Assembly: GCA_027605045.1 (NCBI GenBank)
Contig: JAQFWX010000008.1
Coordinates: 1,488,001 to 1,552,000 of the forward strand
Source of the DNA: Phallus indusiatus
Taxonomy: Eukaryota > Basidiomycota > Agaricomycetes > Phallales > Phallaceae
DNA: 64,000 bases
Reading direction: 5' to 3'
A program made the position numbers and the translations under genes. Shown one piece after another: positions 5,927 to 64,000 of this stretch. The notes below the pieces were generated by a model. That model was not told the DNA's origin. It did no database searches and saw nothing but the letters and a program-made list of their open reading frames with translations. Position 1 is the stretch's first letter. Each line of letters opens with the position of its first letter.

Positions 5927-8441
5927 CTGTTATCGGCCGGATAAAAGACTGAGTAAAACGGTAGTATTAGTTTATTGGTGCAAAATGTCCGCAAAACCTC
6001 TCTGCTTTCTCCGTCTTCATCGGCTGTTGGGAATATTCGTCTATGAGGCCCGTGAATTAGACTTGAAAAATGTCATGATAATGAGTTACTTACACACCCC
6101 CGCCATTTTACTAATTCCTCTACTTCGTTTTTCCATTTGCACCAGGTGATGCAAAGAACTTGAGGGAATGGGATCAATGTAAATGTGCTCAAAGGAAGAA
6201 AAAAAGGAAAAAGGGAACGTATTCGTTATTTTTGTTTTGTAAGTTGAACGAAAATTTTTATGTATACATCGTTTTGTGCAGTTGTGGAGACACGATGGGA
6301 ACGGTGTCAATACTATGTGGCTAGTGTGAAAATGTGGAAAGCCAGAAAGGTTAACTGAAATGTATGATAGAAGGGAATTAAAGGGAAACCGGACTGGTGC
6401 CTCAAAATACTATAGTCACAAGGTGACAAGGAACAGCACATAAGCTGCCAAATACATAACAGACAGAGAGAGACACAGACTTATATATGTTGGTTCCACC
6501 GCGCACTATACTCCATATCCATCCAATTTCACATTCCGGATCGGGGTTAAACCCTTTTTAATCCAATGTGTCCTCAAACGTCATCGGCATCAAAGTACAA
6601 CGAGTAAAAATTGGAAAGGACCTTTCGGTCGTTCTGACCCAAAGGCATCACTCTGATGGCCTCTTCGATTGTTTCCCGGGTTCCTGAGTGAGTAGCGGCA
6701 TTACCTTCTTTCCGAACTTCGGAATGATCATTAGCCAGGTAATGGGCGAGGTCATAGGCACTTGATGAGAATGAGGCGGAACTTTGGTTCATTAATTTTT
6801 CGATCGTGGCTGTTGCCGCGATCACTCGTTGGTCCTCAGGTATCGCGAACCAATCGATACACCCTTTATCCTTTACCACTAATTTACGAATGTCATCCAA
6901 CAGATGACGAAGAGTAATCCATTTTATCGTCTTCTGGGACTAAAAAACATACGCCAAAAAATCCAGGGTAAGCTGTATTCATAACGAAGACTCACTTTGG
7001 CAAATTCAGCCCTCATTAACGAAGTGCTCTGGACTAGATCATTGTACTTTTCTTCTGGAGACTACGAAATCTTTCTTCATTACTACAAATTATTTCTTCA
7101 TTAGCTTTCTTGGATTCCTTTACATATTCCTCCAGCATACGAATGCGGTCGTCCGAGTCGGTTGACGACGCCTTTTTAGGCGTGGACGGCTCTATGTAAA
7201 GTATTACGACCGAAAATGTATATAAAAGGAGGACAGACCTTTTGTAGTTTTCGTCGCAATCGTTTTTTCTTTCGCGACGAATTCTTCCTCAAGAAGCAAC
7301 AGTCGTTTCAGTGTTTGTTTGTATTTGTCGCTCAACGGGGTATTACTTTCAGTGCTCGTTGATTTGATGATGAATATAGTATTCTCGGATTCCGTCTTTC
7401 ATGGTATCTCCATAGACGATGGTTCTATTGAAAATATATGAGCAAAATAAAGTCGCTGACTCTGTCAAGTTACCTGAACTCGGAACAATCTCAATGGATA
7501 CATCGTCTAAAGTCGCGCGATATTCATTCCCATAATAGAGGATAATATGTTCTAAAAGCCTTTTTTTGTGCCATTTCTTGAAATTCTTGTACGGTGGCTT
7601 CGGGCATCACCCCAAAGGTCGCCCGTCGTAAAGAGCTGCAACCTCGATTTTTTTTCTGGGGAGCCTTTCGTTTCCCCGCAGCTCGAGACATGGAGGTCTC
7701 GTGGCGAAAGGGTTAAGCTTAATTTCCTTTTTGGCAAAATTTTGTTTCCCGGCAGTTTGAGCGGACATGAGCTACAAGTTCAAGGAGGTCTGGGGCCACA
7801 GTTGTCGCGCGTGACTCACAAGTCGGCTTATATATCATTCCTTCTCAAAAATCATGTGGCAAGGATCAGTGTTAAATTACACTCGTTCAAGCTGTTCTTG
7901 CCAAAAAAAAATAAATTCACAACTAGGATGTACTCTGTGGCATCACTAGCCCTATGACTTGAACCGAACACCCCAGAGTTATCCACTGGCACTGGATCGG
8001 GCGCTAACTTGGCGCTCACTTAAACTCTATTAGTCGGGCCTTCAGCTTCAGGATTCGATCGTCTGTACAGTGTATGCTTCTGTTCAACTTCTGTTTCGTC
8101 TATAACAGATGCCTTCTCCGTATTCAACCCAGTCTGACCTTATAGTTTCCAAACAGAATGTTCAGAAGCAACACTCCAGAAGCCCTAAAGGATATCCAAA
8201 CCGCAGACTGTCATCTAATCCGAGCTTCAAGAACGACTCGCTATACTTCGGCACTTGTAGAATATGGACAATGAAGCTGAGAGAACCAATGATACTTTCC
8301 AGAAATATGAAAACGTATTTGCTTCCCGTAAAGCGTCATTAAGAAGTCAAAATAATAGATAAATTCCTTCTATAGTGTTATCGACCGGATAAAAGACTGA
8401 GTAAAACGATAGTATTGGTTTATTGTTACAAAATGTCCGCA
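5927..8441 (+). repeat. Direct repeat pair of ~67 bp (5927-5993 and 8374-8441)
   Basis: The two segments share ccggataaaagactgagtaa and end in caaaatgtccgca, with few differences. They bracket copy 3 of the accessory family, and a weaker third version lies near 4650. They may be remnants of family 5' flanks or of a dispersed repeat. Only the two ends are repeated, not the whole interval. Confidence 0.7.
6574..7691 (-). pseudogene. Accessory-family member (copy 3), near full length, two frameshifts
   Basis: All family exons are present on the minus strand. Exon 1 starts at 7691 (MSRAAGKRKAPQ) and contains TFGVMPEATVQEFQEMAQKK, which matches VFGVDPETPVREVEKYAKQE of the intact copy. The frame is lost in a seven-A run at about 7562-7568, then resumes as LLEHIILYYGNEYRATLDD. 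The next exon follows an intron with a normal GT donor (ggtaacttg). The coil exon (7180-7005; DDRIRMLEEYVKESKKANEE) has a second frame change before PEEKYNDLVQ. After an intron, the last exon (6940-6574) is fully open: KWITLRHLLDDIRKLV, CIDWFAIPEDQ, VRKEGNAATHSGTRE, EEAIRVM, LSNFYSLYFDADD. Because the last exon is intact, recent inactivation or a shorter functional product are both possible. Confidence 0.65.
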
Positions 8442-8454
8442 ATGAAAAAATTGT

Positions 8455-9634
8455 TTATTCCTGATATATCCTTATTCCACCTTTGCCCCAGGCTTGCATA
8501 ATTCTCTGACCATCCCCAGTAGGTTGAGAAAACGCTATTTGGCCCTTGGTCGGATCGAGCGGACAACCATACACAAACGTTCTCGCGGCTGCATCAAGCA
8601 AAGTCTTCGCAATTCCTCGACGACGATGTGTTCCACAGACAAACAGACGAGATATTCCAAGAGGCGTTGGAACTAGTTCTGGGCTGAGAAAAAAAAACAA
8701 AGCGCGACAAGTTTTGAGTAACGTTCGTAGATTTTGTAATTCAAGAGCTTACCTGCAATATAATCCTCCATCGACATGGACCACTTGTGAAAGGCATCCG
8801 TCATTTTCCTTGGAAGGTTCTGAAATTATTTTCATTGCCGAAACGATGCGCTGAGCGATTACGCAGCCGACGATCCGTTCTCGCGTTGTGTTTGGTACAG
8901 GTATTAGGAATAGATAGGCTTTTGAAGCCTTGAGTACTTCTGGTGTGAGAGAAGGAGCAGATAATGATAAGTTAATGGTATCAAAGAGATTGGATAACTG
9001 TTCGTATGCCCGTTAGTCTGTGCATTTTGAGATCTGAGGCGAATTTAGCGTTACTCACTTTTGCGCCGATTTTACCACCAGCGTCGGCGGGAACCGAGAT
9101 GATTCTTGCAAATATATCGCCATTGGTGTCTTTAAACCGCAGTAAATCTTCAATAACACGAACTCCGGCTTTATCTGCTTCGCGTTCCTCTTCCTTTCCC
9201 CACTCTAGACCCCGCTGAACGCGCGAACAGTGCTTTTTATGCAAACTCTCGTCTTCAACGGCGCCTTTGATGTATGACAGCGAGCACTTGGGACACGTTC
9301 GCAAAGTCTTATTCACCACAAAATGCAGTTGTGTGGTTGCTTTGGCTGCTGGTTGAAGAGGAGTTTTCTTCTTCGGCGCATGAGGTTTCGCGTCTAAGGA
9401 TTTAGGCAAATTCGAAGAAGACTTCAGCAGTTCCAAGGCATTTCGAGCTTTCTTCGTTGGCGGTGGTGGGGAATTGAGAATCGAGCTATCCGCTAGGGGT
9501 CGCTTGCGTTTCTGGATGGGATCGGAAATGGGACTAGTCGTTGGTGAGGATGGCGATGGCGATGATTGAGGCGATGAGAGAAATTGACGTGGTCTGGAGG
9601 AATATGTGTGTTTGACTTGTAGTCGAGAAAGCAT
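8455..9634 (-). CDS. ECO1: Sister-chromatid cohesion N-acetyltransferase Eco1/ESCO
   Basis: Eco1/ESCO acetylates the cohesin subunit Smc3 in the nucleus during S phase. The protein has a Ser/Pro-rich, basic N-terminus, then a C2H2 zinc finger of the ESCO type (CPKCSLSYIKG ... HKKHC, about residues 110-135), and a C-terminal GNAT-like domain. The latter shows GISRLFV, the acetyl-CoA loop RRRGIAKTLLDAAARTF and the family signature IAFSQPTGDGQ. Three exons are inferred. Intron 1 has donor gtgagtaacg (about 9058) with its acceptor near 8999; exon 2 encodes VPNTTRERIVGCVIAQRI. Intron 2 has donor gtaagctctt (about 8752) with its acceptor near 8688. I place the start at 9634 (MLSRLQVKHTYSS); an upstream Met at 9673 is possible. 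The stop is at 8455-8457. Length about 330 aa is normal for fungal Eco1. Confidence 0.9.
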
Positions 9635-19074: not shown

Positions 19075-19744
19075 TAATGCTAAGATGGAACAGGAAATGG
19101 CTTCACTCAATAATTCGGTGACACCTTAGCCAAGGTTAGTTTTTGACATGACCTCAGCTATACTAATTCTCCTAAAGTATGGCTTTTCACATGTATACTC
19201 CCTTCAAATAACTCTTGTCTCGTTCTCTTTTAGATTCTCTGCGAGAAATGGTGGCTCGAGAGCTGGGCTTTGACAGTTGGTTCGATATCAACCCAACGCG
19301 AAGAGACACTACCGTGACAACAGTTTTAGCGGACCTGATAGAGAAGAGTCCAGTTCGGTCAAGTATCCACTTCGAGGCTCCTGAAATCTCTGCATTCCTC
19401 ACCAACGGGCAACAACAAGGCAACGTCGCAGCCCATTCTGTTGACCAAAGAGATATCAGAGAGGCGATGCTACCACCTGATCAGAAAAATCACAAATTGC
19501 TCTTAGACTGCCACTCAATTATATTTGGAGTCAGTGATGCTGACGATAATGATACTGATCAAATTTTTTGAATTTGAATAGGTGCAAATGCTGTGATTTG
19601 TTTTGTCGAAATAGTTATCGAGACTGATACTGAAATTGCTTTCTATATGTCGCTCGAATGCCTACTGTTATTTATACACAAAGTTAATTTTTCAGATACT
19701 TAGCATGAAATTTAAACTTGGTTTTTAAGACGACGTAGAACAAG

Positions 19745-19985
19745 CAGTGTCAAGCACTAGGACAGCGTAAGGCCGTGGGTTCGGCCAAGCCCCTTCACAC
19801 CCCGACTCGAGCTCCGCGGAACCTACATATAGCCTGTATACACACCACAGTATTTATACCCGTGATCTTTTTGAAGTATTCCTTCCTAAACCCATTGCGC
19901 AGCCATGGTCGGTACATGTCCCAAGATCATGAAAGGCATTTGTCCTCACTTATGTCGCCAAATATAAGGATCTGATTCCGGATAC
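19745..19985 (+). pseudogene. Accessory-family fragment (copy 5): promoter and first codons only
   Basis: The segment tatacacaccacagtattta, followed by tacccgtgat and the block cttcctaaaccc-ttgcgca before ATG (about 19905), aligns with the 5' flank of the intact copy (35063-35160). After the ATG, similarity (aagatcatg, matching aggatcatg) is lost within about 70 bases. It is a truncated 5' end, next to the CACTA-like element. Confidence 0.55.
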
Positions 19986-20156
19986 TCCGGCTCGCCCCGG
20001 ATACATCCTTTCGCGCACGCTCATTGGCTCTTTCCCTCTCAGCTTTCCCGCGCGCAATGGCTACCGGCGCTTGCTTGGGTAATCGTGTGACGCGTCCCCA
20101 TTAATCGTGTGATGCGTCCCCACCACACTATCTATCTAACCACCACCACTATCCAT

Positions 20157-21396
20157 CACTGGGGACATTGTAGGGTTTAGCCAAAAAAAGGATCTTAAGA
20201 AAATTATAGTTCGAGGTATAGACTATTGATGATTTACCAAATTGTACAATTATATTATAATTAATACTCGGATTAAGGGATTCTGGTTTGAAAAATTGTC
20301 AGTATACTGCTATAATATCTTGGTTGAATTATGTAATAATTCTTTATCATATAAGCCCATGATCAATGTTATCCATTCAGTAAAATAATAAACAGAATGA
20401 AACTTACTGTTAGGGCTACTCAGCTCACACTAGAGGGAGGGGATCCTAAGACAATATATTGGAAGGGAAACTAACTACTCACCTAGAGGGAGGGGATCCT
20501 AAGAGAACAAGCTTAGGGACCCTCACTCTAGGGACAGCGACTATATACATGAAAAACGATAGCGCGGCGTGCGGCCCTGACACAGCTAAGTGCCAGACGC
20601 CCAAACCGAACATAAGCGACGTGACGCCGTAGGCGTCACGCCGGGTACGAGCGCGCAACGCGCGCGAGTAGAGAAAGTGGAACAGAGACAGAGGGAGTAA
20701 ACGGAGGGTGGAGATAATATATGGGAAATATAATTAAAATAGATGGAAACATATACCGATGATAATAAATGAGGAAAAATGAGGGGACGCGGTAGCGTAC
20801 CCTGACACTTACATTATCATCATCCATATTGAAGAATGTTCTGAAAATGTTGTTTATATTTATTGTGAGAATATATTTCTATTATAATTTGGATGCATGG
20901 GAAAAGCTTAATTTTAAGCATGAGAATACTCTTTGTAATATTAGAGTTTTCCTAGGAAAACCTTAATAATACATGGATTCCTGGAAAATCTTGAGAAAAC
21001 TCTAATGTCACAAATTGTGACCTTAAGTTTTAATTACATAGAAACTCAATATTTACCACACCCTCAAAATTATGATAAAATACTTTATTGACAAGTAATT
21101 ATATCAACTTGAATATATAATTTTCCACTATAGTTAATAATAATATATGTTTTAGTTTGTATACTGTTTGACTGAATAGAGAAAGTTATTCATAGTGTTA
21201 TATAAGTAAAAATTATTACAGAATTTAACTAAGATAATAATAGCAGCATACTGACAATTTTGCAAGCCAGAATCCCTTAATCTGAGTATTAGTTATAATA
21301 TGATTGCACAATTTAGTAAATCATCAATAGTCTATACCTCGAACTATAATTTTCTTAAGATCCTTTTTTTGGTTAAACCCTACAATGTCTCCAGTG
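20157..21396. mobile_element. Non-autonomous CACTA-like element with ~160-bp inverted repeats
   Basis: The left end CACTGGGGACATTGTAGGG and right end ccctacaatgtctccagtg are inverted repeats extending about 160 bp (20157-20330 against about 21226-21396). The flanks carry a 3-bp duplication CAT (20154-20156 and 21397-21399). CACTR ends and a 3-bp duplication point to the CACTA/EnSpm superfamily. No transposase frame exists. It contains a solo LTR; its own length is about 835 bp and its core (20810-21230) is very AT-rich. Confidence 0.7.
20408..20807 (-). mobile_element. Solo LTR (family A, Gypsy) in the CACTA-like element
   Basis: Read on the plus strand it starts TGTTAGGGCTACTCAGCTC and ends GCGGTAGCGTACCCTGACA, the reverse complement of the Gypsy LTR at 21709-22104. 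It is flanked by CTTAC duplications (20403-20407 and 20808-20812). It is 400 bp long, so it arose by LTR-LTR recombination of a full insertion. Confidence 0.95.
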
Positions 21397-21708
21397 CATC
21401 CGTCCGTCCATCCATCCACCGTCATCCATTCATTTTATTTATTTCTAAGGTAAGATAAGATTATTATTTTTTTCTTTCTTTTCTTTTCCAATCTAATTAC
21501 TTGGACCTTGAACCCAGGGAGTGGTCGCTCGCTTCTCTCATCATCCAACCACCACCATCATCATTCATCATCCGACCGACCCAATTCTTCCCGGTTTACA
21601 GGTTGAGTCCTGTACACCGTGGGCTTGGCTTAGAAAGAAAGGTATGTAACATGATTTTCTAGTCTATTTGATTTGATCTTTTTTAAGGTATCCTAGCATT
21701 GCCGCCAT

Positions 21709-22104
21709 TGTCAGGGTACGCTACCGCTGTCTCTCATTTTCCTTGATTATTACCATCGGCATCACTTCATTTCTATTCCATTTATTATTTCCGTGTTTTA
21801 CTTTTACTTTCCGCTTCCTTGTTTTGTCTCTATTTCACTTTCTCTACTCGCGCGTGTCGCGCGCTCGTACCCGGCGTGATGCCCGTGACATCATGTCGCT
21901 TAGGTTCGGCTTGGGCGCCTGGCACTTAGCTGTGCCAGGGCCGCACGCCGCGTCGTCGTTTATGTATATAGTAGCTGTACCTAGAGTGAGGGTCCCTAAG
22001 CTTGTTCTCTTAGGATCCCCTCCCTCTAGGTGAGTAGTTAGTTTCCCTTCCAATATATTGTCTTAGGATCCCCTCCCTCTAGCCTGAGCTGAGTAGCCCT
22101 AACA
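21709..22104 (+). repeat. 5' LTR of the Gypsy element (396 bp)
   Basis: It starts TGTCAGGGTACGCTACCGC and ends GAGTAGCCCTAACA. A TATATA box is at 21965-21970, and the predicted transcript start, aagcttgttct, is at 21998, about 30 bp downstream. It contains a twofold repeat of ggatcccctccctctag. Confidence 0.93.
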
Positions 22105-22106
22105 GT

Positions 22107-22117
22107 AGAACAAGCTT
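22107..22117 (+). other. Predicted self-priming primer-binding site
   Basis: Two bases after the 5' LTR lies AGAACAAGCTT, an exact complement of AAGCTTGTTCT at 21998-22008 inside the LTR. No tRNA 3' end match is evident to me. In Tf1/sushi retrotransposons the first 11 nt of the transcript pair with the PBS and prime reverse transcription, and this site has that length and position. Confidence 0.75.
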
Positions 22118-22268
22118 CTACTCGCAGACTGGCCGTTTTTATCGACACTCGCTATCGAAAAATCGCGCTCGACACCGACTATCGCAGTATCGTATTTTTC
22201 CCTCGAGTCCCGTCTATAACCGACCCCTCTGCTCCATCTTAAAAACCCCATTTTCCTTTCTCTCTCTC

Positions 22269-23579
22269 ATGGACTCTTCTCCTCCACCCTCTGCACCCCC
22301 GCTCGTCACCCTCAACGATGTGGCGACTATTATTATGCGGCAATTCGCGGAAATGGATGCCCGCATGGCCAGACAGGAATCCCAGGCCTCACAGATGATT
22401 GAGGTGCTACAGAGCATCCGAGACGCGGCTAGAGCTGCTCCAACCCAAAACCCCCCTGTGGGCGATGCGTCCTCGTCTGGACAACCACCGGCTCCTGAGC
22501 ATCAAGCCAGTTCACGCTCTTCCCGAAATACCCGACCTGCTGTACCTCCTTCGTTCGACGGAGATTGCTCCAAGGGTCGCGCCTTTTGGAACACTGTCGA
22601 GTTCTACATGAGTATATGCAGTCGCGACTTCGAGACTGATGAACTCAAGATCGGCTGGGCGATGTCGTACATGAATGAAGGTCGTGCCCTTACCTTCAGC
22701 GAATCTATGCTGAAAAGGTATCAAAGGGGAGAGAAACCCTTCGCTGACTGGGATGCCTTCCGGGAAAGATTTAAGGCAGATTTCTTTCCACAATCCGAGC
22801 AAGAAGATGCCATCAACGCCCTCTACTCCAACCGCTATGTCCAAGGCAATAGGACTGTGGAGGAGTATGTAGACGCCTTCCGCGTACTCATTGAGCACGC
22901 TGGCTTTACGGAAGGACTCGCCATTAACACGTACTTTCGTAACGGTTTAGACCCGGCAATTGCATCTCTGGTAGCGACGATGAAAGACCGACCCGCACTC
23001 CACGACTACGAAGGCTGGATCAGGCAAGCATGCATGTTTGACATGGACAGGCGTGCCAACGAGGCCTTCACCGCTGCTCGCCGTCGACTCGTGGGCTCTG
23101 GAATGGCTCAGACAAATCCCGCAGCTGTCCCCATTAATCGACCTCGTCCCAACCCTTTTCCGTCGTATCAGACCCTCCAGATCCAGAGGAGGCCCCCTGC
23201 CCCTTCCTATCAGGCTCCTCCCTATCCACCTCCTAGGCCAGCATCTCAAATCGTGCCCACGTTGCCTCCGAGACCTGCGGCTCCCGCTCCTGCACCACAG
23301 GTTAGGCATGATCCGATGGACGTTGACGCTGCCCGTCGACGTGCTGGCCTAGAATCAACCAGGTGTCGTCGCTGTGGAGCAGCAGGCCATTGGGCTCGCG
23401 AATGCCCTCGTGCATATGACATCCGGTATCTCCAGCCCGAGGAGTTAGACGACAGTATCGTGCATCTGCTGGCCCAGAAAGACACGCTAGAAGCCCAGAC
23501 ACGTGGTGACTCTGCTCTGACTGAAGGGGAGACTGTAGCTGCAGCAGAGGTAGAGGATTTTCAAAACGGCGACGAGTGA
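22269..23579 (+). CDS. gag: Gypsy Gag polyprotein
   Basis: The 436-aa protein starts MDSSPPPSAPP and has a retrotransposon Gag core (FDGDCSKGRAFWNTVEFYM, then the EYVDAFRVLIEHAG region). It has a Pro-rich stretch and a CCHC zinc knuckle (CRRCGAAGHWARECP, about residues 364-378) that binds the RNA. The start follows about 160 bp of leader after the PBS. The stop overlaps the pol frame, which is -1 relative to gag. The frame is undamaged. Confidence 0.93.
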   Translation: MDSSPPPSAPPLVTLNDVATIIMRQFAEMDARMARQESQASQMIEVLQSIRDAARAAPTQNPPVGDASSSGQPPAPEHQASSRSSRNTRPAVPPSFDGDCSKGRAFWNTVEFYMSICSRDFETDELKIGWAMSYMNEGRALTFSESMLKRYQRGEKPFADWDAFRERFKADFFPQSEQEDAINALYSNRYVQGNRTVEEYVDAFRVLIEHAGFTEGLAINTYFRNGLDPAIASLVATMKDRPALHDYEGWIRQACMFDMDRRANEAFTAARRRLVGSGMAQTNPAAVPINRPRPNPFPSYQTLQIQRRPPAPSYQAPPYPPPRPASQIVPTLPPRPAAPAPAPQVRHDPMDVDAARRRAGLESTRCRRCGAAGHWARECPRAYDIRYLQPEELDDSIVHLLAQKDTLEAQTRGDSALTEGETVAAAEVEDFQNGDE

Positions 23580-26500
23580 ACGATGCACCCTCGTTGCCGA
23601 CATCTAATAGATTCGACATTTTGTACATAGATCGCGAACAAAATGACACTTCTGATTCGAATCTAACTACCCCTGCTGCATCCCCTGCTAAACCCAAAGA
23701 ATCGTCTCCACCTGCTACACGCTCTGTTTCAACTCCATGTATGCTGTCGCCTTCTCAACGTCGCGCACTGCCAAGCGAATACTGACTCGCAGCTACTGCT
23801 GGCACGCAGAAGTTAGAGATCCCGGTGGAACTACAGAGTGTTGACACTGGAGCCCTGCTGCACAGCAAGGCCATGCTGGACACTGGAGCTAGCGGTATGT
23901 TCCTCGATCGCGACTTCGTCGACAAACATCGGCTTCCCTCCGTGCGTCTTGCTAAACCAATTCCCGTGTTTAACGTCGATGGTACGCCCAACCATGCTGG
24001 CTCTATCACCCACGTCGTCGACCTGGTTGTTCAATTTCGGGATCACTCTGAACGCACCTTGTTCGCCGTTACCTCGCTCAAGTATCCCGTCCTATTTGGG
24101 CTGCCGTGGTTCAAGGCTCACAATCCCGTCATAGACTACACAACTGGTCAAGTAGAGTTCATGCGCTGCAGCCCCAGTTGTCGGTCTTGTGCTCCACGCT
24201 GGCCAGCGGGTAAGCTCTCTAAGCGCGCGTTCCAACAGATCCGACGCGCACCTCTACCAGAGCTCGACAACACTGAGGCCGATGATCCTGACATACCAGA
24301 CCTGGTCGACGTCGAGTCTGAGATTGAAGAGGGTGATCGACTGTTCGCGATATCAATGCTACCCGACGAGCCCGACACTCACCGCATATATGCCACCGAG
24401 ACCATCTCCCAGCGACTGGCTCAGGCCCATGCCAACAACGCAGACGCACCAGCTCCCAAGGGCTTTCGGGATATCGTGCCAGAAAGGTTCCACGACTTTG
24501 CCGACATTTTCTCGAAGGAGTCATTCGATTCGTTGCCGCAGTCGAAGAAGTGGGATCACCCGATAGAACTTGTGCCAGGTTCTGAGCCCAAGTCTTGCAA
24601 GATCTACCCGCTGTCACCTAATGAACAGGCCGAGTTAGATGCGTTTCTGGAAGAAAACCTTGCATCTGGACGAATCCGGCCCTCCAAGTCGCCCATGGCG
24701 TCCCCGGTGTTCTTCATTAAGAAGAAAGATGGCTCTCTTCGCCTTATTCAGGACTATCACGCGTTGAATGCCATGACAATCAAGAATCGTTACCCGCTGC
24801 CTCTGATCTCGGAACTCATCAACAAACTGCAAGGTGCCCGGTACTTTACCAAGCTGGACGTGCGCTGGGGTTACAACAACGTACGGATAAAAGAAGGAGA
24901 TGAGTGGAAGGCTGCTTTCCGCACCAATCGTGGCCTCTTCGAGCCCTTGGTGATGTTCTTTGGTCTCACTAACAGTCCTGCCACCTTCCAGACGATGATG
25001 AACGAGATCTTTGAAGACATGATCTCGGAAGGTGTTGTTGCCGTCTATATTGACGACATTCTCATTTACACTCGGGATCGGGAACAGCACGACAGGGTAA
25101 CACGACGCGTTCTCGAACGTCTCCGTGAACACAAACTGTATCTCAAGGCAGAGAAGTGCGAGTTCTGTCGGACTAGGATCGAGTACCTGGGTGTCGTCAT
25201 CTCCGAGAATACCGTCGAGATGGATCCCGCGAAGGTCTCGGGTGTCAGAGACTGGCCTGTCCCGAAGAACGTCACCGAAGTCCAGTCCTTCCTAGGTTTC
25301 GCCAACTTCTACCGTCAGTTTATCAAGGACTTTGCGCGTATCGCCAATCCCATGTTCGGGTTAACCAAGAAGGATACTCCCTTCGTCTGGTCCGATGTAT
25401 GCCAGCATGCCTTCGATACTCTGAAGTCGTCAATCACCTCCGCTCCCATCCTCCTCATTCCCAACCCCGCTAATCCTTACAGAGTTGAAGCAGACAGCTC
25501 TGACTTTGCAACAGGCGCAGTTCTCTCGCAACTGTCGGACGAGGACGGTAAATGGCACCCGGTAGCATTCTTCTCGAAAGCACTCAGTCCTGTCGAACGC
25601 AACTACGAGATTCACGACAAGGAGATGTTGGCTATCATACGATCTTTGGAGGAATGGCGACACTTTCTAGAAGGCGCGTCTCACCCTATCGACATACGGA
25701 CTGATCACAAGAATCTCGAGTACTTTATGACCGCACGTAACCTCAATCGTCATCAAGCTAGATGGTCTGTATATCTCTCACGTTTCGACTTCACTCTGCA
25801 GCATATACCGGGTAAGTCGATGGGGAAACCTGATGGCTTGTCCCGTCGCCCAGATCATGGCTCGGGAAAGGACGACAATCGTGGCGTCACTCTAATCCGA
25901 CCCGAAATGTTTGCAATCAATGCTCTGCAAACATTCCGTCTTAAAGGGGAGGAGGAGGACCTTTTACGCCAGATTCGCAAGGCCAATCGGGAAGGCAAGG
26001 TCGAAGATAGTGTTTCCAAAGCCGTTGCAACACTTCGTGCACTGGGTGGTCGTTCGGCTCACTCGTCGGAATGGTTCGAAGACCAGGACCTCCTCTATTA
26101 TCGCGGCAAGGTTTACATGCCAAATGTGGACGAGTTGCGTCGGAAAATCCTTTCCAGACACCACGACACCAAACTCGGTGGTCACCCGGGTCGTTTCAAG
26201 ACTCTTGAGCTCGTTTCGCGCACCTTCTGGTGGCCAGGTGTCTCCAGGTATGTCCAACGCTACGTCGAGGCCTGCGACATGTGTCTACGTACGAAACCCC
26301 CTCGTCATGCTCCCTATGGCCTTCTCCGACCCACAGAAGTGCCAAGTCGACCCTGGGAACACATCTCAGTCGACTTCATCGTGGAGCTGCCAGAATCCAA
26401 CGGTTTCGATGCAATCCTCTCTGTCGTCGACTCTCTCACCAAACGGGTTCATTTCGTGCCGACATTTACGATACTTGACGCGACAGGTCTAGCCCGTCTG

Positions 26501-27885
26501 TACCTTCAACATGTCTGGAAGCTCCATGGTCTCCCCATGAAGGTGATCTCTGACAGGGGCCCCCAGTTCGCGTCTCGCTTCACGCAGGAGCTTTCTAGGC
26601 TCCTTGGCATACGGCTTGCACCCTCTACGGCATATCATCCTCAAACCGATGGTCAGACAGAGCGCGTCAACGCAGAAGTCGAACAGTACCTTCGACTTTT
26701 CACCTCTGAGCGACAGGACGACTGGGACCAGATACTGCCCCTGGCTGAGTTCGCATATAACAACCACGTACACTCAGCTACGCGCGCGACACCGTTTGAG
26801 CTCGACACTGGACGACATCCTCGCATGGGATTCGAACCGCTGGTTGCCGACTCAAAGATCGAATCGGTCAACGAGTTCAAGACACGTATGGAGTCGACGA
26901 TAGAGGAAGCCAAGGCCACCATAGCCAAGTCGAAGGACGAGATGGCCAAGTACTACAATCGGAAACACATCCCGGCACCTGAATACAAGGTTGGCGACAA
27001 GGTATACCTCGATTCGAGCGACATTCGTACCACCAGGCCCTCCGCCAAGTTATCGCATCGGTACCTGGGGCCCTTTCCGATAGTCAGCAAGGTCAGATCA
27101 CACGCATATAAGCTGCGTTTACCACTGTCGATGTCAAGGCTTTACCCAGTGTTCCATGTCGGGAAGTTGCGTCCAAAGGTTGAAGATACAATCCTGGGTC
27201 GTCGCGTTAAGGCCCCCCCCCCTCCTGAGGTCAGAGACGATGGTGAACACTATGTCGTGGAACGGATCTTAGACAGTCGTGTCTTCCGGAGACGACTCGA
27301 GTATAAGGTGCGTTGGGCCCGGCCTGCAAAAGTACTCTGAGTAGAGCCGCTCGGCAAGTGCAGATTTGAAGCGCACTGAGGCGTTAAGGAGCCTGGATAA
27401 GCCGAAGACGGCGAATGGCGGTCGCATAAGACTATGAGCCAACAGTTTGGTCCAGATTAGAAGCCCAATGAAGCGGTTCGATTTAGCTGGGAACACAGGC
27501 AGACAAAGAAGTACCGGCACCCCTTTCTTTAACCCATGGCCTTAAGGCCTTATGCAGCAGGCAGAGTCACAAAAACTATATAAATATGTAATTACAAAAA
27601 GAAAAAGTCCCGACACATAGGGCACGGCCCTCAGGGACTCAATAGATTCACACACACACACACACACACAAGGTGCGTTGGGAAGGCTATGGTCCCGAGC
27701 ACGATCAGTGGGAACCTGAGTCAAATATTGCAGCCCCGGATCTCATTAAGGAATTCCACCGCGAACATCCGAGTGCGCCACGCTCGATAAATGGCCTTCT
27801 TTTCCATCGTCGCCCTCGGTTCGATTTCTCAAAGTTACAGGCGTCATTAGTCGAAGCTACAGGCGTCGGGACGCCGCCTCGTTGA
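23576..27885 (+). pseudogene. pol: Gypsy Pol polyprotein, interrupted by a stop and an insertion
   Basis: The frame overlaps the end of gag in -1 phase, meets a TGA at 23783-23785, and continues. Domains in order: aspartic protease (MLDTGASG, 23873); reverse transcriptase (VAVYIDDILIYT, about 25035-25070); RNase H (VEADSSDFATGAVLSQ, DIRTDHKNLEYF); integrase with the HHCC zinc site (HHDTKLGGHP ... CDMC) and the D-D-E core (SVDFIVELP, ISDRGPQFASRF, TDGQTERVNAEVEQYLR). The C-terminal chromodomain is split: KYKVRW is followed by a 352-bp insertion ending the frame at 27340. The rest ([16 protein letters not shown] ...) is at 27673-27885. Both lesions together make this copy non-autonomous. Confidence 0.93.
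27318..27669 (+). mobile_element. SINE-like retroposon in the Gypsy chromodomain
   Basis: The 352-bp insert is flanked by a perfect 13-bp duplication AAGGTGCGTTGGG (27305-27317 and 27670-27682). Removing it restores the chromodomain frame exactly. It lacks TIRs and LTRs, has a candidate Pol III B box (ggttcgattt, about 27475) and ends in a (CA)n tail, features of a tRNA-related SINE mobilised by a LINE. The A box is unclear, so a processed RNA of other origin is possible. Confidence 0.65.
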
Positions 27886-28131
27886 AGGGGGGATGGTGTC
27901 AGGGTACACTACCGCCGTCTCTCATTTTCTTATTTATTATCATCGGCATCATTTCGTTTCTATCTTATTTATCATTTCCATATTTTACTTCCACTCTCCG
28001 TTTCCTTGTTCTGTCTCCATTTCACTTTCTCTACTCGCGCACGTTGCGCGCTCATACCCGGCGTGATGCCCGTGACATCACGTCGCTTAGGTTCGGTTTG
28101 GGCGCCTGGCACTTAGCTGTGTCAGGGCCGC

Positions 28132-28704
28132 TGTTAGGGCTACTCAGCTCAGACTAGAGGGAGGGGATCCTAAGTAATATATTGGAAGGTAACTATACTA
28201 CTCACCTAGAGGGAGGGGATCCTAAGAGAACAAGCTTAGGGACCCTCACTCTAGGTACAGCTACTATATACATAAAACGACGACGCGGCGTGCGGCCCTG
28301 GCACAGCTAAGTGCCAGGCGCCCAAGCCGAGCCTAAGCGACGTGATGTCACAGGCATCACGCCGTGTACGAGCGCGCATCACGCCGTGTACGAGCGCGCA
28401 TCACGCCGTGTACGAGCGCGCATCACGCCGTGTACGAGCGCGCATCACGCCGTGTACGAGCGCGCATCACGCCGTGTACGAGCGCGCATCACGCCGTGTA
28501 CGAGCGCGCATCACGCCGTGTACGAGCGCGCATCACGCCGTGTACGAGCGCGCAACGCGCGCGAGTAGAGAAGGTGAAATATGGACGGAGAGAATACACG
28601 GATGATAGAGGTAATGCACGGGAAATATAAATAAGATAGAAATAGATATATACCGATGATAATAAATAAGGAAAAATGAGGGGACGCGGTAGCGTACCCT
28701 GACA
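28132..28704 (-). mobile_element. Reversed solo LTR (family A) nested in the 3' LTR
   Basis: It starts TGTTAGGGCTACTCAGCTC and ends GCGGTAGCGTACCCTGACA, flanked by GCCGC (28127-28131 and 28705-28709). Its 573 bp exceed the 396-400 bp of other copies, almost exactly by the eight extra 22-bp units described separately. Confidence 0.93.
28355..28552. repeat. Nine tandem copies of a 22-bp unit inside an LTR
   Basis: The unit catcacgccgtgtacgagcg+cg is repeated nine times without spacer variation. The homologous position in the other LTRs of this family has a single unit. The array contains no stop in three frames, which produces spurious Arg-rich frames. It is a tandem array, not a CRISPR, since no spacers separate the units. 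Confidence 0.95.
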
Positions 28705-28869
28705 GCCGCACGCCGCGTCATCGTTTGTGTATATAGTAGCTGTACCTAGAGTGAGGGTCCCTAAGCTTGTTCTCTTAGGATCCCCTCCCTCTAGGTGAGT
28801 AGTTAGTTTCCCTTCCAATATATTGTCTTAGGATCCCCTCCCTCTAGCCTGAGCTGAGTAGCCCTAACA

Positions 28870-29798
28870 CTTTCCAATGTGGGAGCTTGAGTGCATCAGC
28901 AGTTACACAGCCGAAAATAAGGTGTTGACGCTGTAGCTTCAAAGTTTCAAAATTCCTAAATCAAATAATAAAATAAAAATAAAATAAAATTGAGAATGGT
29001 TTTCTCACCTTGTCCATAAAGTCCAGCTAAATGAAGAGAATGCACGCCATCCAAGCTGCTTATGAAGCAGCAGCCGGCCTTCGCTGGTTAAAGAGAGTGT
29101 GTCGGGTAGATCGAGCTTCAAAGGAACAAATAGAAGTGACCAATTGTAGATCCGTTGGAGAATATTAAGAGACATTGCAGTTGAATGAGACCTCTGGTTT
29201 TCTGCCCCATGCTTCTTTTTGATGGCATGTACAGTGTCCATCACATCGACTGAACATGCCGGATTACCAGACCCCCTTCCTTTTTCTTCATTCCACTTCC
29301 AAACACCTCGATGAATTCCTTCTGTATCTCTGAAAAAAAAATATGTCAGAAAGGGGTGAAATAAATAATTAAAAAAACATACACATTGTCCCAGTATTTC
29401 TTGAAAGCGGCCTGGATGCCATCAGCGGTAGAAGCACCAAGGTTTTCGTTGAAGCACTTGAAGGAAATCAAGCTTGCGAGTGCCCAAGGTGAGGCCCGTG
29501 TGGGTGTGGGGTCAAATGCATGAGCCAAGTCAGCAGCAGTCCACTTCCACAAAGTCTGAGAGCCACTTTCGGGACTACCACGGGGACATTCGAAGGTGTT
29601 ACCATCCCCAATACCAGAAACTAGGTCAGTCAACCACTGCTTGGCACATTGGACATATCCGTTATAACGGGCGGTGGTGTTGGCAGCAGTGCCGTGTTTC
29701 TTTTTTGATGCCTGCTTCACATGCTCGAGCTCAGTGACAGTCAAGGAACCTGTTGCTGATGCTCTGGGTGCTCTCTTGGTTCTGGGAGTGGGAGGCAT
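28870..29798 (-). pseudogene. Crypton-like (tyrosine recombinase type) protein, 3' end cut by Gypsy LTR
   Basis: Exon 1 starts at 29798 (MPPTPRTKRAPRA) and contains ANTTARYNGYVQCAKQWL, WTAADLAHAFDPTP and ENLGASTADGIQAAFKKYW. Exon 2 (about 29335-29008) contains RGVWKWNEEKGRGSGNPAC, QRSHSTAMSLNIL and FSSFSWTLWTR. Exon 3 (NFETLKLQRQHLIFG ... KLPHWK) breaks off exactly at the LTR end (28870). The pattern resembles a repetitive basidiomycete family that I recall as Crypton-like, with the N-terminal part of a tyrosine recombinase. The catalytic C-terminal part is absent, so I cannot confirm this from R-H-R-Y residues. Introns have normal GT-AG ends. All visible exons are open; only the truncation disables it. 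Confidence 0.45.
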
Positions 29799-29861
29799 AA
29801 AACTGAGACAACGGTGAAAAAAATCGGCTCGCCGATTGAAAATTGCACCCGTTGTTTGCAT

Positions 29862-30895
29862 GACACATGTTGACGATGCTTTGGGGACTCAGGTTATGTG
29901 TTGACTTCATGCCTCTTGGTTGTGATACATCTCGTATTGTGAAAAAAAAAAACAAAAACTGTAGTTACACATGTGTAGGCTATGCCGCCGACCAGTTAAA
30001 ATTTTTCTATACATTGAAAATGTTAGTCATGGGATTTTTGACGTTTTGATGAATGATAAAACATACCTGGTGAGCTTTAAATAAAAGAAATAAAGTGTCC
30101 ATCTGCTAGAAGAACTCAGAGACTTGAATCTGAACAACAACGTGAATTATACATACCATCTGACCTGAGCATAGAGCAAATAGCGAATCACACTACACAA
30201 ACTTGAGAGACATTTCTAGAGGAGAGAATGAATTGAAACTACATTGCTACATCATTAAAATATGAAACTCACAGTTCTTATCACAATAACCGACCCAGAA
30301 AATGCAGATGTCGACTGTCCAGCCACCCGGGGGCCGGCAACACTATTACTGTTAAAATTGGGTCCAGAAAAATATCAATTCAATAAGTGGATTAAGACGA
30401 ACACAACTTACAATTTAAGAAGGATAAGAAGGATAAGAAGGATAAGAAGGATAAGATGAAATATAAGACTGTCGGATATAAAGAAATAAGCAGCAAGTAG
30501 TCTCAGCCGACAATAACTTAAAATGACCAAAGCGGCTAGCATACCAATACAACGCTTGTAAGAAATCATTTATCTGTTGAAAATATATGATTCGTCAATA
30601 TGATAAATAAGAAAGCGAATAAAACAATTGAGAATTCAGCATAAAAAATGAACAAGCTAATTAAAATGAAAAAAAAAACACACCGGCATCATGCAGATTA
30701 TCATTGTGCCAGTAACATCCTGTACATTCAACATAAACTCATCTGATTGCTATCAGATGCGAACACGAAAATATCAAAACCTGCATATCATTGCTGAACA
30801 CGATGGTGGCAACTTGAAGTGGGGTTGGCAGCGGTAGTGTGATTTGCAACAGTCTGCAGAGAGATTGAGAAAAAATCAAAGGGATAATCCGCATT
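29862..30895. other. Intergenic region with a short 9-bp tandem repeat
   Basis: No gene is seen. Four to five units of aaggataag lie at about 30417-30456. The remainder is AT-rich without recognisable exons. Confidence 0.55.
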
Positions 30896-32069
30896 TGTCA
30901 TGATCCGATTCATGACATCACTTCCGGTAACGTTACGTAATCCATATCCGATCATTTACCGTTTATCTCCGTAATCTTATCTCGCTTATGTCACTCACGA
31001 TATGACCTTCGCGTTCAGTCATCTCAATTTACCTCGCAACTCGAATAGAGACGTACCCATCTCTCTTAACTCCTGGAACACCCGCGGAAAGCCCTTTCTA
31101 GAATATTCCACGCACGTTCCGGTTATGAGATCATAGATGACGAACGTAGGTCCATGTATGCACAGCACTTATCCCTGCATGCCTCATGGTCATCACATGA
31201 GACATCATACCCTGCATATATTGATATTACTTACGAATCTCACGACTTGTTTGTATTTCTCAAGTTCGGAATCTATTTCGAACTGAGCTAGAATTATTTA
31301 TCTGACGTGTATATAAACCCTAGCATACACGTAGATAGTTCTTCAGGCTTAATATCGAACGTAGTTCGATATCTCTATAAACTCTCTTTTCTCTTACTCT
31401 CTTCATCATTGAACGTCGAGATCGTTCCTCGAGACTTGCAGCGACGGAAGCCATCCGTCGTTGCCGAGAGTTACATCTCAAAGCTTTCTTCATTATTGTC
31501 GAGCTTGATATCATTCAATACGAGATACAGCTCGCGGCTCTTGAAGCTCGGAACGCACATATCAGAAACGTCCTTGACGAACTCGACGCTCGTGACGAAC
31601 GTCAGGACAAATCCTGAAGAAGACTGTCGCGGCACAACCTCTTATAGGTTGAGGCCAAGTCCTGACTGTCGTCAACCAACGGTGACAGTTATTGGTGTTA
31701 TATTGTAACGGATTTGGGATATAGGAATGGGCCCCCCTGGGGCCCATTAATGGCCTAGTGCCCATGCAGTGCCTTTGGCACTGCAGCAGTAGTATTTGCG
31801 CGTCACAGCGTGACGCTTAAGCGCCTGTCACACCCTTACAGCGGTGTGACTAGTAGTTACATTAGTTAATCTTAATCTTTCCTACTACTACTGCATGTAA
31901 TTCCCTATTAGCCTTATTGAGCAATAGACAGGAATTCTGTGCACTTGTGGGAAAATAAGAAAAACCCTTTATCAGACCCCCCTGTGGTCTGATAAAAACT
32001 GTTACATATATTCAGCGACTAAAATATATTACAGTATCTATTACCGTTCCCGGATATCGGTACTTGACA
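30896..32069 (+). mobile_element. Solo LTR (family B), carrying a nested LTR
   Basis: It begins TGTCATGATCCGATTCATGA and ends CGGTACTTGACA, flanked by GCATT (30891-30895 and 32070-32074). Without the nested 303-bp element and its 5-bp duplication it is 866 bp, against 867 bp for the copy at 17742. Substitutions between the two copies are few. Confidence 0.93.
31704..32006. mobile_element. Solo LTR (family C, 303 bp) nested in family B LTR
   Basis: It begins TGTAACGGATTTGGG and ends AAAACTGTTACA, flanked by TATAT (31699-31703 and 32007-32011). The empty site is preserved in the other family B LTR (gtgttatattcagcg). The TG...CA ends and 5-bp duplication indicate an LTR. Internal palindromes (gggcccccctggggccc, gcagtgcctttggcactgc) suggest strong RNA structure. 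Confidence 0.85.
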
Positions 32070-32289
32070 GCATTTTATCTTACCAAAATGTTCATAAACA
32101 TAAAACTTCAAATAAGTTTCAGATTTTTACTGGAGAACACCTTCAATGAACGGTTGAGTTCGACGGCAGTGGCATGATTACATAAATGATATTACTAGAT
32201 GATCCCTAGTATCTCGCTAATAAGCGTGACACGACAATAACGCTTAATTTTTTATATTTTGGTGTTCATAGGGACTTAATGACAAATTA

Positions 32290-48709: not shown

Positions 48710-49368
48710 ATGCCTCCAGATACCCCACCTTGTAAGACAATTTTTTTTTTCAACTTTCAACTGAATTCTCATACTAACGTTTTATCTAGCAGTTGACTCG
48801 TCGACTGATTACCTCGAAGCAAGATTTGAAAAGCTATCTGCGCAAAATAGAAGAAACTAGAGCAGAACTCGCAGAATTTAAAACGAAATCTAGAGCAGAA
48901 TTTGCGCAGATCAAAGCAAAATTGCAAGAACATGCTCGAGTCCGGCGTTGCACACGAACTGGAGACAGGTTGCTTTTCAGGCGCAAACGTTCTCCATTAA
49001 GTGGCTGTGGGCAGCCGCGCGTCAGATGATGAACACGGTAAAAGATATAATCGCACATAAACTGAAAGAGTCTAGTTGGTTGGATATTGCTGGTGATAAT
49101 GTCGACCGAGAATCAAAAATCACCAACGCGATTTCCAACTTGATCAAAGACAATCAGAAAGAATCGGTCATCAGACTCTCGCGCGTCGTTTTTAGCTAGA
49201 TATCTTGATTGCCCCAACAACGCGATTCGAAAAACCGGTAATCTCGTTGCACATTCCGTAACACGGGAGCAGGCAAAAGAGGCCATTCGAAGAATGGCGT
49301 CGGATCCGGTAGAAAAAGACGTCCTAAAAGCTTTTTATATACTCATTTATCACCTTGATGACTTTTGA
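48710..49368 (+). pseudogene. Accessory-family member (copy 10), frameshifted
   Basis: A 22-nt exon 1 (ATG at 48710, MPPDTPP) is followed by an intron with donor gtaagacaat. The coil exon begins SVDSSTDYLEARFEKL, then changes frame near 48850 to RAELAEFKTKSRAEFAQIKA. A degenerate intron ends in ttgcttttcag (48975). The last exon reads KWLWAAARQMMNTVKDIIAH, KESSWLDI, ITNAISNLIKDN, changes frame near 49165-49185, then LARYLDC, IRKTGNLVAHSVTREQAKEA and FYILIYHLDDF with TGA at 49366. Two frame changes make it a pseudogene, although the Arg/Gly-Asn/His motif survives. It is divergent from copy 9, with about 190 bp between start codons. Confidence 0.65.
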
Positions 49369-52421: not shown

Positions 52422-52726
52422 TTGTTGAGAATATCCCATCCCCATCAAAGCTTTTCCCCCTTCTTCAACCTTCTATACTTATCCGCCTCTAATGCAAGCG
52501 CATTGAAGCTCGCCCGCATTGAAGTTGAGGCCGCCGTTGCAGTTGAATTGGATGAGCTGAGAGCGGAAATTTTCAAGGTGAGTCTCTGTTCAATGGTATT
52601 ATTTGTTGACGCATTGCTTTTCAGATAAAATCCTCAGTAAAATGGACATCCCAACGTATAAACTCCGTTAAAGAATTAGTAACACACAAACTGAAAGAGT
52701 CTGGTTGGTTGAACATCACAAATTGA
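52422..52726 (+). pseudogene. Accessory-family fragment (copy 11)
   Basis: The coil exon reads SALKLARIEVEAAVAVELDE, then LRAEIFK, followed by the family intron (gtgagtctctg...ttgcttttcag, 52576-52624). The last exon reads IKSSVKWTSQRINSVKELVT, KESGWLNITN and then stops at 52724-52726. The Gly-Asn part is missing. Confidence 0.6.
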
Positions 52727-52761: not shown

Positions 52762-53207
52762 ATGACTGAAAATATTCAACGTGAGCCTCCGTCTCCCAGG
52801 AAATGAATTGTTCCTGTTGACATATTACTTCCCAGCTCCAATCTTCGCTAAAATGGATTTGGGCGAGGCAGGCCCTCAACGACGTTCGTACCATTGTTCT
52901 CCGTAAACTCGGCAAAAAACACTGGTATGAAATCAAGGGACGCGATCGGGTGTCAACCATAACGACAGCAATACAAGAAGCTATTGACGAGAATCCATTC
53001 CATGAGGCGATTCCCCTTAAAGCGTCTGAAATTGCAGAATACATCGACAAGCCGGATTCTCCAATTCGGGACCACGGTAACACAGAAGCCCACTCCCTTG
53101 AAAAAACTCAGTTTAGGGAGGCAATCACTTTACTGCCCGAAGAAGAGAAAAGAATTTTAATTTCATGCTTCATTTTACTCTACCGAGACGTGGACATCGG
53201 TCCATGA
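52762..53207 (+). pseudogene. Accessory-family member (copy 12), last exon open
   Basis: The last exon (52836-53207) follows an intron with acceptor cttcccag: LQSSLKWIWARQALNDVRTI, GKKHWYEIKGRDRVSTITTA, SEIAEYIDKPDSPIRDHGNT, EAHSLEKTQFREAITLLPEE and FILLYRDVDIGP. The Arg, Gly-Asn and His of the family motif are kept. Just upstream only a minimal ATG exon (52762, MTENIQ) is found, and it joins out of frame, and no coil is present. Copy 11's coil lies 200 bp upstream, so copies 11 and 12 may be one tandemly duplicated locus. Functionality is uncertain. Confidence 0.55.
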
Positions 53208-53911
53208 CCAACCAACTTCCAATCAATCTTTTGTAAGTATATTTATGTAATTGTGAATGTACTATTGAATGTAGCATGCTGACAAGACATCTTTCGCTGA
53301 TAAAAAAGAACTCATCCTCCGGATAGCCTCTCTTGCCTCCTCACGAGTTAGAGAATGTGCTCTTCAATTTCCGGATTTTCTAGTGAAGTTGTTAGGATCT
53401 CCAGCTAAGAGCGCGGGGATGAGTCTAGAATTCAACAGAATCGAAGTGAAGATCCTAACGTCACCATGATTAAGTTCGTTTGCCTCCTTGTCATTTATCA
53501 TTGTCTTTCTTTGTTACTAAACCCATGTTTTGCGTTTAGATGTATGGACGGTCTTTGGATATGGAATCGCGCCAACACTGATAAATATCTTCTTACAACG
53601 TTCTCAGCATTTTCTCAAACTATATGTCGCGATGCATCAATGCTCTCACATGGGGGATTTCAGCTGTAAAGCAATGTGTCAACAAATATAATCAATCTCT
53701 TTTGTAAATGAAAACTCACGTTGAAGATTTCATTCGCATATCCTGAATTTCGACGTCATGAGTTTCACATGCTCATCAAACTGGTATTGGCGTGCATCAA
53801 GTCTACCAGAAGTGCTTCGAATTCTGCTCTCAAAACGGATTCTCGGAAAACAATTGATATCAGTGAAAATCTATACGGAAACAGGGAAATATTAATGAAG
53901 ACTCGAGACGA
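53208..53911. other. Spacer between family copies
   Basis: It contains a short palindromic block (gttaggatctcc ... agatcctaac, about 53390-53460) and otherwise no recognisable gene. Confidence 0.5.
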
Positions 53912-62887: not shown

Positions 62888-63006
62888 CTAACCAGTTTAT
62901 AAAAGAAAAACAACAGATGATTAAGCGACATACAACAAGCAAAACTATCTCGATAGCTAATTGATAACCAAAACAAATCACAGTATGCAAATTTCAATTA
63001 ATTGAA

Positions 63007-64000
63007 TTATAGTCGGTCGTCAACATTGACGTCAAAGAGTTTTGCATAGCAATTGGAAGAGTACTTGGCGATGTTTTTTTTTTGAGTGAAAACATTCACA
63101 TCACTTCTCGATATCATCTTCCTCCCCAGAGCGGGCTGTAACATTACCCTGTCCGAGTCTTCGGACATACGAACGTTCATGGACAATATATGAAGAGATC
63201 TCAACCGGTGCCAATTTAAAACTATGCTTCGCTTGGCTCCGCTCCATTAAAGCCCTCAAGGCTGACGTCGTTTTAATCAGTTTTTGAGCTTGATCGATGT
63301 GGAACCAATTTTGAAGGCCCAGTTCATCAGCCACTTTTGCCCGTAGAGTATCTAAAAGATAACGAGACATGAGCCACTTGAAAGGTCTTTGGAACTGTAT
63401 GGATATGCGTTAATGGAATCAAAATAAAGGAATACAGGATAAAGGCTCACCTTCAATAGTTTGTCTTCGAGCTTATTATTGATGTCAGCCTGTAAAGACA
63501 ACTTCCCGTTGACTCTACCCAGCTCCCTTTTGACTTTATTGAGCTCCCTGTAGAGCCAATCATTAATAGATGTCTGCTCGGACAATTTCCCGTTGACTTT
63601 GCCCAGTTCCATTTTGATTTTACCCAGCCTCTCGTTAAAATCAGCGTTAATGGATGTCTGCTCAGACAACTTTTCGTTGACTCTACTCAGTTCCTTCTCA
63701 AACTTCGTGTTGAATTCATTGAATTTTTCCAGCACCCTGTTGGTTTTACCCATTTCGTTTTTTATCTCAGCCATTTGTGCCTGAAGATCAAGGATCAAAC
63801 TGGATGGTTGATCGTTTGAAGGAGTGGCTGTGAATGAAACTACACCAGAAATAATAATGAGAAAGCAAAAAAACAAAACAAGAAGAAAAAAATTAAAACC
63901 AGTTGTCTTACCTTCTGGTCCTGATTTTTCCTGAAGTTCTGTTTCATACACAGCATCGACAGATTCTGACTTTTCGGCTTCGTTCGAACAAAAAACAAAC
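63007..64000 (-). pseudogene. Accessory-family member (copy 15), 5' end beyond window, C-terminus frameshifted
   Basis: From the window end it reads FVFCSNEAEKSESVDAVYET, then ELQEKSGPE, an intron (gtaagacaactgg...gtgtag), and VSFTATPSND, homologous to SSATPPGNS of the intact copy. A long coiled coil with three repeats (ELGKVNGKLSEQTSINDWLY and similar) follows. After the intron gtgagcctt...atacag, the last exon reads FQRPFKWLMSRYLLDTLRAK, NWFHIDQ, VEISSYIVHERSYVRRLGQG, NVTARSGEEDDIEK, then a TGA. Beyond a frame change it continues as TQKKNIAKYSSNCYAKLFDV, then NVDDRL. The motif His is replaced by Arg and the C-terminal helix is out of frame, so it is probably inactive. Confidence 0.65.

What the first reader, a model, noticed from the sequence alone, without database searches (positions are those of the whole stretch)
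6574..64000. A dispersed multicopy gene family with a HEPN/DUF4145-like C-terminal motif
At least seven last exons (about 6.6, 19.2, 32.8, 36.1, 49.0, 52.9 and 63.2 kb) share the same order of signals: K-W near the exon start, a helix with R-x-(L)-L-D-x-(V/L)-R, W-(F/Y)-x-I, an I-x-x-(F/Y)-(L/I) helix, G-N-x-x-(A/T)-H/R, D-x-x-E-A-I, and a final (Y/F)-x-x-(F/Y) helix. Most have R-x2-G-N-x3-H. This is seen directly. DUF4145 and related HEPN domains have an Arg and His around a G-N or N (HEPN: R-x4-6-H); here the spacing is one residue longer, so homology is inference. HEPN proteins are often RNases in defence and conflict systems. A fungal family of this kind, multiplied next to transposons, would be a new candidate system.
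Basis: partly seen in the sequence, partly recalled or inferred. Interest (0 to 1): 0.88.

Follow-up and report, generated by a model that had tools for sequence, protein, structure and literature searches.

The report
Decaying fungal HEPN-like gene cluster
In a stinkhorn-like fungus, a small local gene family, most of whose copies are broken, carries a short motif typical of bacterial RNA-cutting defence proteins; one copy in the window is intact in both haplotypes, and what it does is untested.

Summary
The seven "last exons" are truly homologous (profile search; 0 hits in 36,530 shuffled frames). They are not dispersed genome-wide: the matches found lie in two local clusters, each on a pair of haplotype contigs. 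In the window the haplotypes are collinear (94.6-99.1% identity), and the big transposon block is on one haplotype only, so these insertions did not spread the family. Most copies are broken. One gene (35159-36422, 4 exons, 366 aa) is open on both haplotypes; its C-terminal domain looks constrained (pN/pS 0.24).

The signature R-x2-G-N-x3-H has the spacing of bacterial DUF4145/HEPN domains (9 of 12 fetched), so "one residue longer" is no objection. Profile comparison gives 89.7% probability over 28 columns (0 of 300 permuted profiles came near), but masking four motif residues abolishes it. Pfam's DUF4145 cut-off is not reached. A good AlphaFold model (pLDDT 85.6) matched no HEPN structure.

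Best reading: a lineage-restricted birth-and-death family (N-terminal domain, coiled coil, HEPN-like domain) that probably works as a dimeric HEPN-type ribonuclease in some intracellular conflict. HEPN homology is likely but unproven; RNase function is inference.

The parts
6577..6939 (-). e1: last exon, open on both haplotypes, motif RKEGNAATH; its upstream exons (about 6960-7712) are frame-disrupted on both haplotypes, in different ways
19212..19568 (+). e2: last exon, stop in place of the first Trp on both haplotypes, Arg of the motif deleted; N-terminal exon at 16697-17083, split from it in the window by a 2-kb insertion
32901..33146 (+). e3: broken copy, motif RRQGNIAAH still readable; broken on both haplotypes
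35159..35423 (+). e4 exon 1: N-terminal domain
35478..35708 (+). e4 exon 2: end of N-terminal domain (K-W-G-S-L-P-P-N-T-T-F-V-F) and charged linker
35762..35991 (+). e4 exon 3: coiled coil; 7 codons longer on the other haplotype
36048..36422 (+). e4 exon 4: C-terminal helical domain, motif RRQGNAAAH, stop codon included; open on both haplotypes
48978..49362 (+). e5: copy with the same frame break on both haplotypes, motif RKTGNLVAH
52610..52723 (+). half copy (first half of a last exon) just upstream of e6; weak hit
   Evidence: (E 0.038), read
52821..53204 (+). e6: last exon open in the window, broken on the other haplotype, motif RDHGNTEAH
53265..53381 (-). inverted half copy with motif remnant
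   Evidence: (E 0.0044)
63104..63409 (-). e7: last exon, ends early; motif carries a 2-residue insertion and, in the window, His->Arg; N-terminal exons lie beyond the right edge
19952..32680 (.). block with Ty3/Gypsy-like frames and other repeats, absent from the other haplotype (not part of the family; bears on its age)

Best explanation
A small, lineage-restricted birth-and-death gene family of an agaricomycete (probably Phallomycetidae/Phallales), kept at two chromosomal loci and mostly decayed. The intact product (e4, 366 aa) has a small N-terminal domain, a coiled coil and a C-terminal helical domain with the DUF4145-type HEPN signature R-x2-G-N-x3-H. Most likely mechanism (inferred): the coiled coil pairs two subunits, the Arg and His of the paired C-terminal domains form a metal-independent RNase site, and the more variable N-terminal and coiled-coil part decides when it acts; the expected role is intracellular conflict (mycovirus or transposon RNA) or stress-induced shutdown. 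Shown: homology of the copies, two-cluster layout, decay, later transposon insertions, motif identity with DUF4145, constraint on the C-terminal domain. Inferred: HEPN fold, dimer, RNase activity, role.
For: Homology and layout. Motif same in residues and spacing as 9 of 12 fetched DUF4145 domains and as the DUF4145 chain 9y9c. Profile-profile probability 89.7%, score 41.8, against at most 17.7 in 300 column-permuted profiles and 12.1 reversed. Forced extension aligns R11-x3-D15 of the first fungal helix with the conserved R-x3-E of DUF4145. DUF4145 is the Pfam family weakly matched by most members, 4 of 9, best E 0.016. e4 open on both haplotypes, C-domain pN/pS 0.24; the 3 of 15 paralogue pairs with usable dS give dN/dS about 0.32, 0.33, 0.47.
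Confidence: 0.4

Rival explanations
1. Unrelated lineage-specific helical domain in which a short R..GN...H loop arose by convergence; the family does something else (for example a coiled-coil scaffold).
For: Signal limited to the motif; no HEPN match for a good model; DUF4145 cut-off not reached.
Against: Exact spacing and the G-N-x-x-A-H context shared with DUF4145, with a following acidic stretch and E-A-I/L helix; R..GN...H occurs 17 times in 447,984 translated residues of the contig stretches and 16 of these are in the family, so it is not a common chance string here.
Confidence: 0.35
2. A dying family without present function: e4 is simply the last copy not yet broken.
For: Of seven window copies only e4 is open in all exons found, on both haplotypes; e1, e2, e3, e5 and e7 are damaged on both haplotypes, e6 on one.
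Against: e4 has kept four exons open on both haplotypes through 38 coding differences, with C-domain pN/pS 0.24, although its N-terminal part shows 5 nonsynonymous to 1 synonymous change, too few to judge.
Confidence: 0.2
3. The copies are cargo or remains of a transposon that spread them.
For: Ty3/Gypsy-like frames and repeats lie between e2 and e3, and partial inverted duplicates occur near e1.
Against: The blocks 12138-13341, 17095-19075 and 19952-32680 are absent from C160, whereas all seven window copies are present there in the same order. Copies keep introns and matches are confined to two loci.
Confidence: 0.05

Closest known systems
DUF4145 (PF13643), HEPN superfamily, as at the N terminus of type I restriction HsdR proteins
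   Same: R-x2-G-N-x3-H with A before or near the His, followed by a polar stretch and an E-A/S-A-(I/L) helix; all-helical domain; R-x3-(D/E) in an earlier helix in the same order
   Different: Distance from the first-helix Arg to the motif Arg is about 18 residues longer in e4; Pfam cut-off not reached; signal limited to the motif; fused to a coiled coil and an N-terminal domain instead of nuclease/helicase modules; fungal, whereas PMC3710099's table lists bacteria, archaea and dsDNA viruses (passage)
Lineage-specific HEPN expansions of other eukaryotes (Swt1-type in Daphnia, KEN in Oikopleura and monocots, paREP1/8-type in Caenorhabditis; PMC3710099 section 9)
   Same: Multicopy, lineage-restricted, some copies without the catalytic motif; read there as defence
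   Different: Other HEPN families; that section names no fungal expansion; this cluster is small and mostly broken
HEPN proteins conserved in fungi (Swt1; Ire1/KEN and Las1, which that section traces to the last eukaryotic common ancestor)
   Same: All-helical RNA-related domain with or without R..H
   Different: No sequence match was seen to any of them in Pfam or PDB searches with the last exon; these are conserved genes elsewhere, not clustered young copies

Membership tests
DUF4145 (PF13643) | Score over Pfam's curated cut-off (23.1 bits) | tested here: not met
   e1 15.1 bits, e6 13.1, full-length e4 13.5; 4 of 9 members match at E<=1, best E 0.016
DUF4145 (PF13643) | Signature R-x2-G-N-x3-H as in fetched members | tested here: met
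   6 of 9 rows of A2 and 5 of 7 window copies; 9 of 12 bacterial members
DUF4145 (PF13643) | Profile similarity beyond the motif | tested here: not met
   Motif masked: probability 0.8%, score 16.0, permuted maximum 17.7; N-terminal part 30 of 200 permuted as high
HEPN superfamily | Four-helix HEPN fold | tested here: inconclusive
   Good model, helices 3-25, 38-51, 63-71, 90-100, 104-118, motif after the third; no HEPN entry in the Foldseek or VIA lists; the domain's first helix may begin in the coiled-coil exon, which was not modelled
HEPN superfamily | R-x4-6-H motif as defined in PMC3710099 | tested here: inconclusive
   Conserved Arg to His spans seven residues, one more than the stated range, but the same as in DUF4145 members, which that paper counts as HEPN
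HEPN superfamily | Metal-independent, His-dependent endoRNase activity | not testable with these tools
   Needs biochemistry
Transposon-encoded family | Copies move with, or are flanked by, mobile-element ends | tested here: not met
   Alleles of all seven window copies on C160 without the three inserted blocks; target-site duplications were not searched for

The most novel reading that the evidence does not exclude
A fungal clade captured a bacterial DUF4145-type HEPN domain, joined it to a coiled coil and a faster-changing N-terminal part, and expanded it into a clustered intracellular RNase defence or self/non-self family of mushrooms, now in turnover.
Probability: 0.2. Interest if true: 0.72.

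Novelty: new variant of a known kind. Interest (0 to 1): 0.42.

Why it matters
Intracellular antiviral and recognition effectors of fungi are poorly known beyond RNA silencing and NLR-like systems (recalled). A HEPN-type RNase family with the DUF4145 signature in mushrooms would tie bacterial abortive-infection nucleases to fungal immunity, and it offers one compact intact gene (e4) to test. If it is convergence or decay, it is still a clear example of a young fungal gene cluster turning over between two haplotypes.

Tried and rejected
Relatives elsewhere: full-length e4 against 5.8 billion proteins, none at E<=0.01 among 6,431 candidates; family profile A2, one protein among 797 candidates at E<=10, P0001, which contains the open copy f2 letter for letter (116 of its 137 residues) and so comes from the same or a very close fungus. 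Control for coverage: a neighbouring ECO1-like frame found 187 proteins, nearest named ones Clathrus columnatus, Hysterangium, Sphaerobolus and Gautieria (best 120 listed), so fungi are well held. The search needs shared 5-residue words, so distant relatives may still be missed. Scans with the e4 last exon of bacterial/archaeal genomes and viral contigs found none; e4 and e1 last exons against plasmids found none.

Other libraries: NCBIfam and PADLOC gave only single-member weak hits, among them QatB at E 0.0074 and 0.036; not followed.

N-terminal domain: by eye it recalls a ubiquitin-like strand-helix pattern (recalled, no call), but the model failed (pLDDT 45.1, pTM 0.32, with 19 in-frame intron codons in it) and Pfam gave no such hit. 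Left as a lead only.

HEPN structures, including 9y9c and yeast Swt1 4pqz (named in a passage of PMC13211469), did not appear in the fold lists; a missing row is not proof of a different fold. A weak viral match (Faunusvirus protein, E 0.84, probability 0.60, TM 0.49) was not followed.

Transposon-borne spread rejected. Mating-type locus considered: 10 neighbouring frames gave ECO1 zinc finger, RhoGAP, LIM (two frames), SNARE and a sub-cut-off kinase, no homeodomain or pheromone receptor (only these 10 frames), so not supported.

Literature: searches pairing HEPN or DUF4145 with Basidiomycota, fungi, mushroom, ubiquitin-like effector, basidiomycete and Agaricomycetes listed no paper about such a fungal family; the library lacks most subscription journals. 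Seen: PMC3710099 passages and section 9; PMC13211469 and PMC4102429 passages only (a dismissed resemblance of K28 toxin to HEPN, and a table line); all others as listings.
Full report
WHAT IS THERE. The window is C184:1488001-1552000 of a 67-Mb, 206-contig assembly. The nearest named relative of a neighbouring ECO1-like frame is Clathrus columnatus (65% identity), followed by Hysterangium, Sphaerobolus and, below two unnamed rows, Gautieria; two unnamed proteins rank above (80% and 62%). The organism is therefore most likely a Phallomycetidae/Phallales fungus (inference). Contig C160 holds the other haplotype: it aligns with the window in the same order at 94.6-99.1% identity, and with the right flank down to about 92%. 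A second cluster lies on C151:1306-1312k and C154:64.7-68.6k, again a haplotype pair.

THE FAMILY IS REAL. A profile from four last exons (e1, e2, e4, e6) finds the three other window copies at E 7.9e-25 (e7), 7.9e-14 and 1.5e-9 (two pieces of e5) and 4.6e-6 (e3). Leaving out each seed still recovers it (window copies E 5.4e-24 to 5.6e-38), and 36,530 shuffled frames gave no hit at E<=1. The pattern R..GN...H occurs 17 times in 447,984 translated residues of the four contig stretches; 16 of these are in the family (two of them with a stop inside the pattern) and one is chance.

MOST COPIES ARE BROKEN. e4 is open in all four exons on both haplotypes. e1 has an open last exon but frame-disrupted upstream exons on both haplotypes, in different ways. 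e2 has a stop in place of the first Trp on both haplotypes, a 4-residue deletion over the Arg, and in the window a 2-kb insertion between its exons. e3 and e5 are broken on both haplotypes; e6 is open in the window and broken on C160; e7 is cut short on both. Beyond the window, e8 has an open last exon on C160 and a stop on C184. In the second cluster one copy is open on C154 only, and a shorter one, f2, is open and identical on both; f2 lacks the motif Arg and Gly.

SELECTION. Between e4 alleles the C-domain has 5 synonymous changes in 87.2 sites and 4 nonsynonymous in 287.8 (pN/pS 0.24); the coiled coil 9.5 in 50.0 and 13.5 in 178.0 (0.40), plus a 7-codon length difference; the N-terminal part and linker 1 in 105.5 and 5 in 389.5 (1.35, too few to judge); the whole gene 0.41. 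Among 15 pairs of six paralogous last exons, synonymous sites are saturated in 12; the other three give dN/dS of about 0.32, 0.33 and 0.47. The C-domain was thus under constraint for much of the family's history.

TRANSPOSONS CAME LATER. Window segments 12138-13341, 17095-19075 and 19952-32680 are missing from C160, where e2 and e3 lie next to each other. All seven window copies and both half copies have alleles on C160. On the simplest reading the family expanded before these insertions; loss from C160 was not excluded.

IS IT HEPN? FOR. I fetched 12 bacterial DUF4145 domains (all 12 match PF13643). Nine of 12 carry R-x2-G-N-x3-H exactly, as do 6 of 9 rows of the fungal alignment A2. The one PDB sequence that a profile of these finds, 9y9c, named DUF4145 domain-containing protein, reads RIVGNQAVH at the same place (E 0.018). 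hhalign of A2 against A3 gives probability 89.7%, score 41.8, over 28 columns; 300 column-permuted versions reached at most 1.7% and 17.7, and the reversed one 0.2% and 12.1. Forced to extend, the alignment puts R11-x3-D15 of the first fungal helix on the conserved R-x3-E of DUF4145. DUF4145 is the Pfam family that most members match weakly, 4 of 9, best E 0.016.

HOW IT PROBABLY WORKS. Inferred from the architecture: subunits pair through the coiled coil, which appears to run into the first helix of the C-domain, and two R..H sites come together, as HEPN RNases need (recalled). The N-terminal part would sense or gate. Copies without the Arg (e2, f2) fit decay or inactive partners. PMC3710099 describes lineage-specific HEPN expansions in other eukaryotes and reads them as defence; [quoted passage not shown] So HEPN proteins in fungi are known; a DUF4145-like local expansion was not found in the searches made.

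VERDICT. Real homologous family; local, not dispersed; mostly decayed; a strong motif-level link to DUF4145/HEPN without fold-level proof. It is not filed as a DUF4145 member, because the cut-off was tested and not met, though it may well work like one.

Noticed in passing
12138-13341, 17095-19075, 19952-32680: Three segments present only on the window's haplotype, the largest with Ty3/Gypsy-like frames (22083-27340); repeats shared between the blocks (17742-18551 with 30896-31704; 18682-19078 with 32286-32682 inverted) suggest related mobile elements.
   Followed up: partly
35424-35477: GC-AG intron of e4 whose length keeps the reading frame open in the window but not on the other haplotype.
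   Followed up: partly
4708-5016 and 5409-5706: Inverted repeat (91.9%) whose parts also resemble the coiled-coil exon region of e1 (6933-7222), that is, partial family duplicates.
   Followed up: no
28354-28560: Short tandem repeat array (141-base offset match at 98.6%) inside the haplotype-specific block.
   Followed up: no
29349-29888 (-): Open frame in the haplotype-specific block without a Pfam match; by eye it recalls a fungal tyrosine-recombinase-like protein (recalled, untested).
   Followed up: no
52082-52494 and 54314-54827: Inverted duplicate pieces (79-81%) on either side of e6, which may mark local rearrangement.
   Followed up: no
C160:98594-100652 and C184:1552806-1554973: Right-hand end of the cluster beyond the window: e8 and a partial e9, with e7's N-terminal exons between.
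   Followed up: partly
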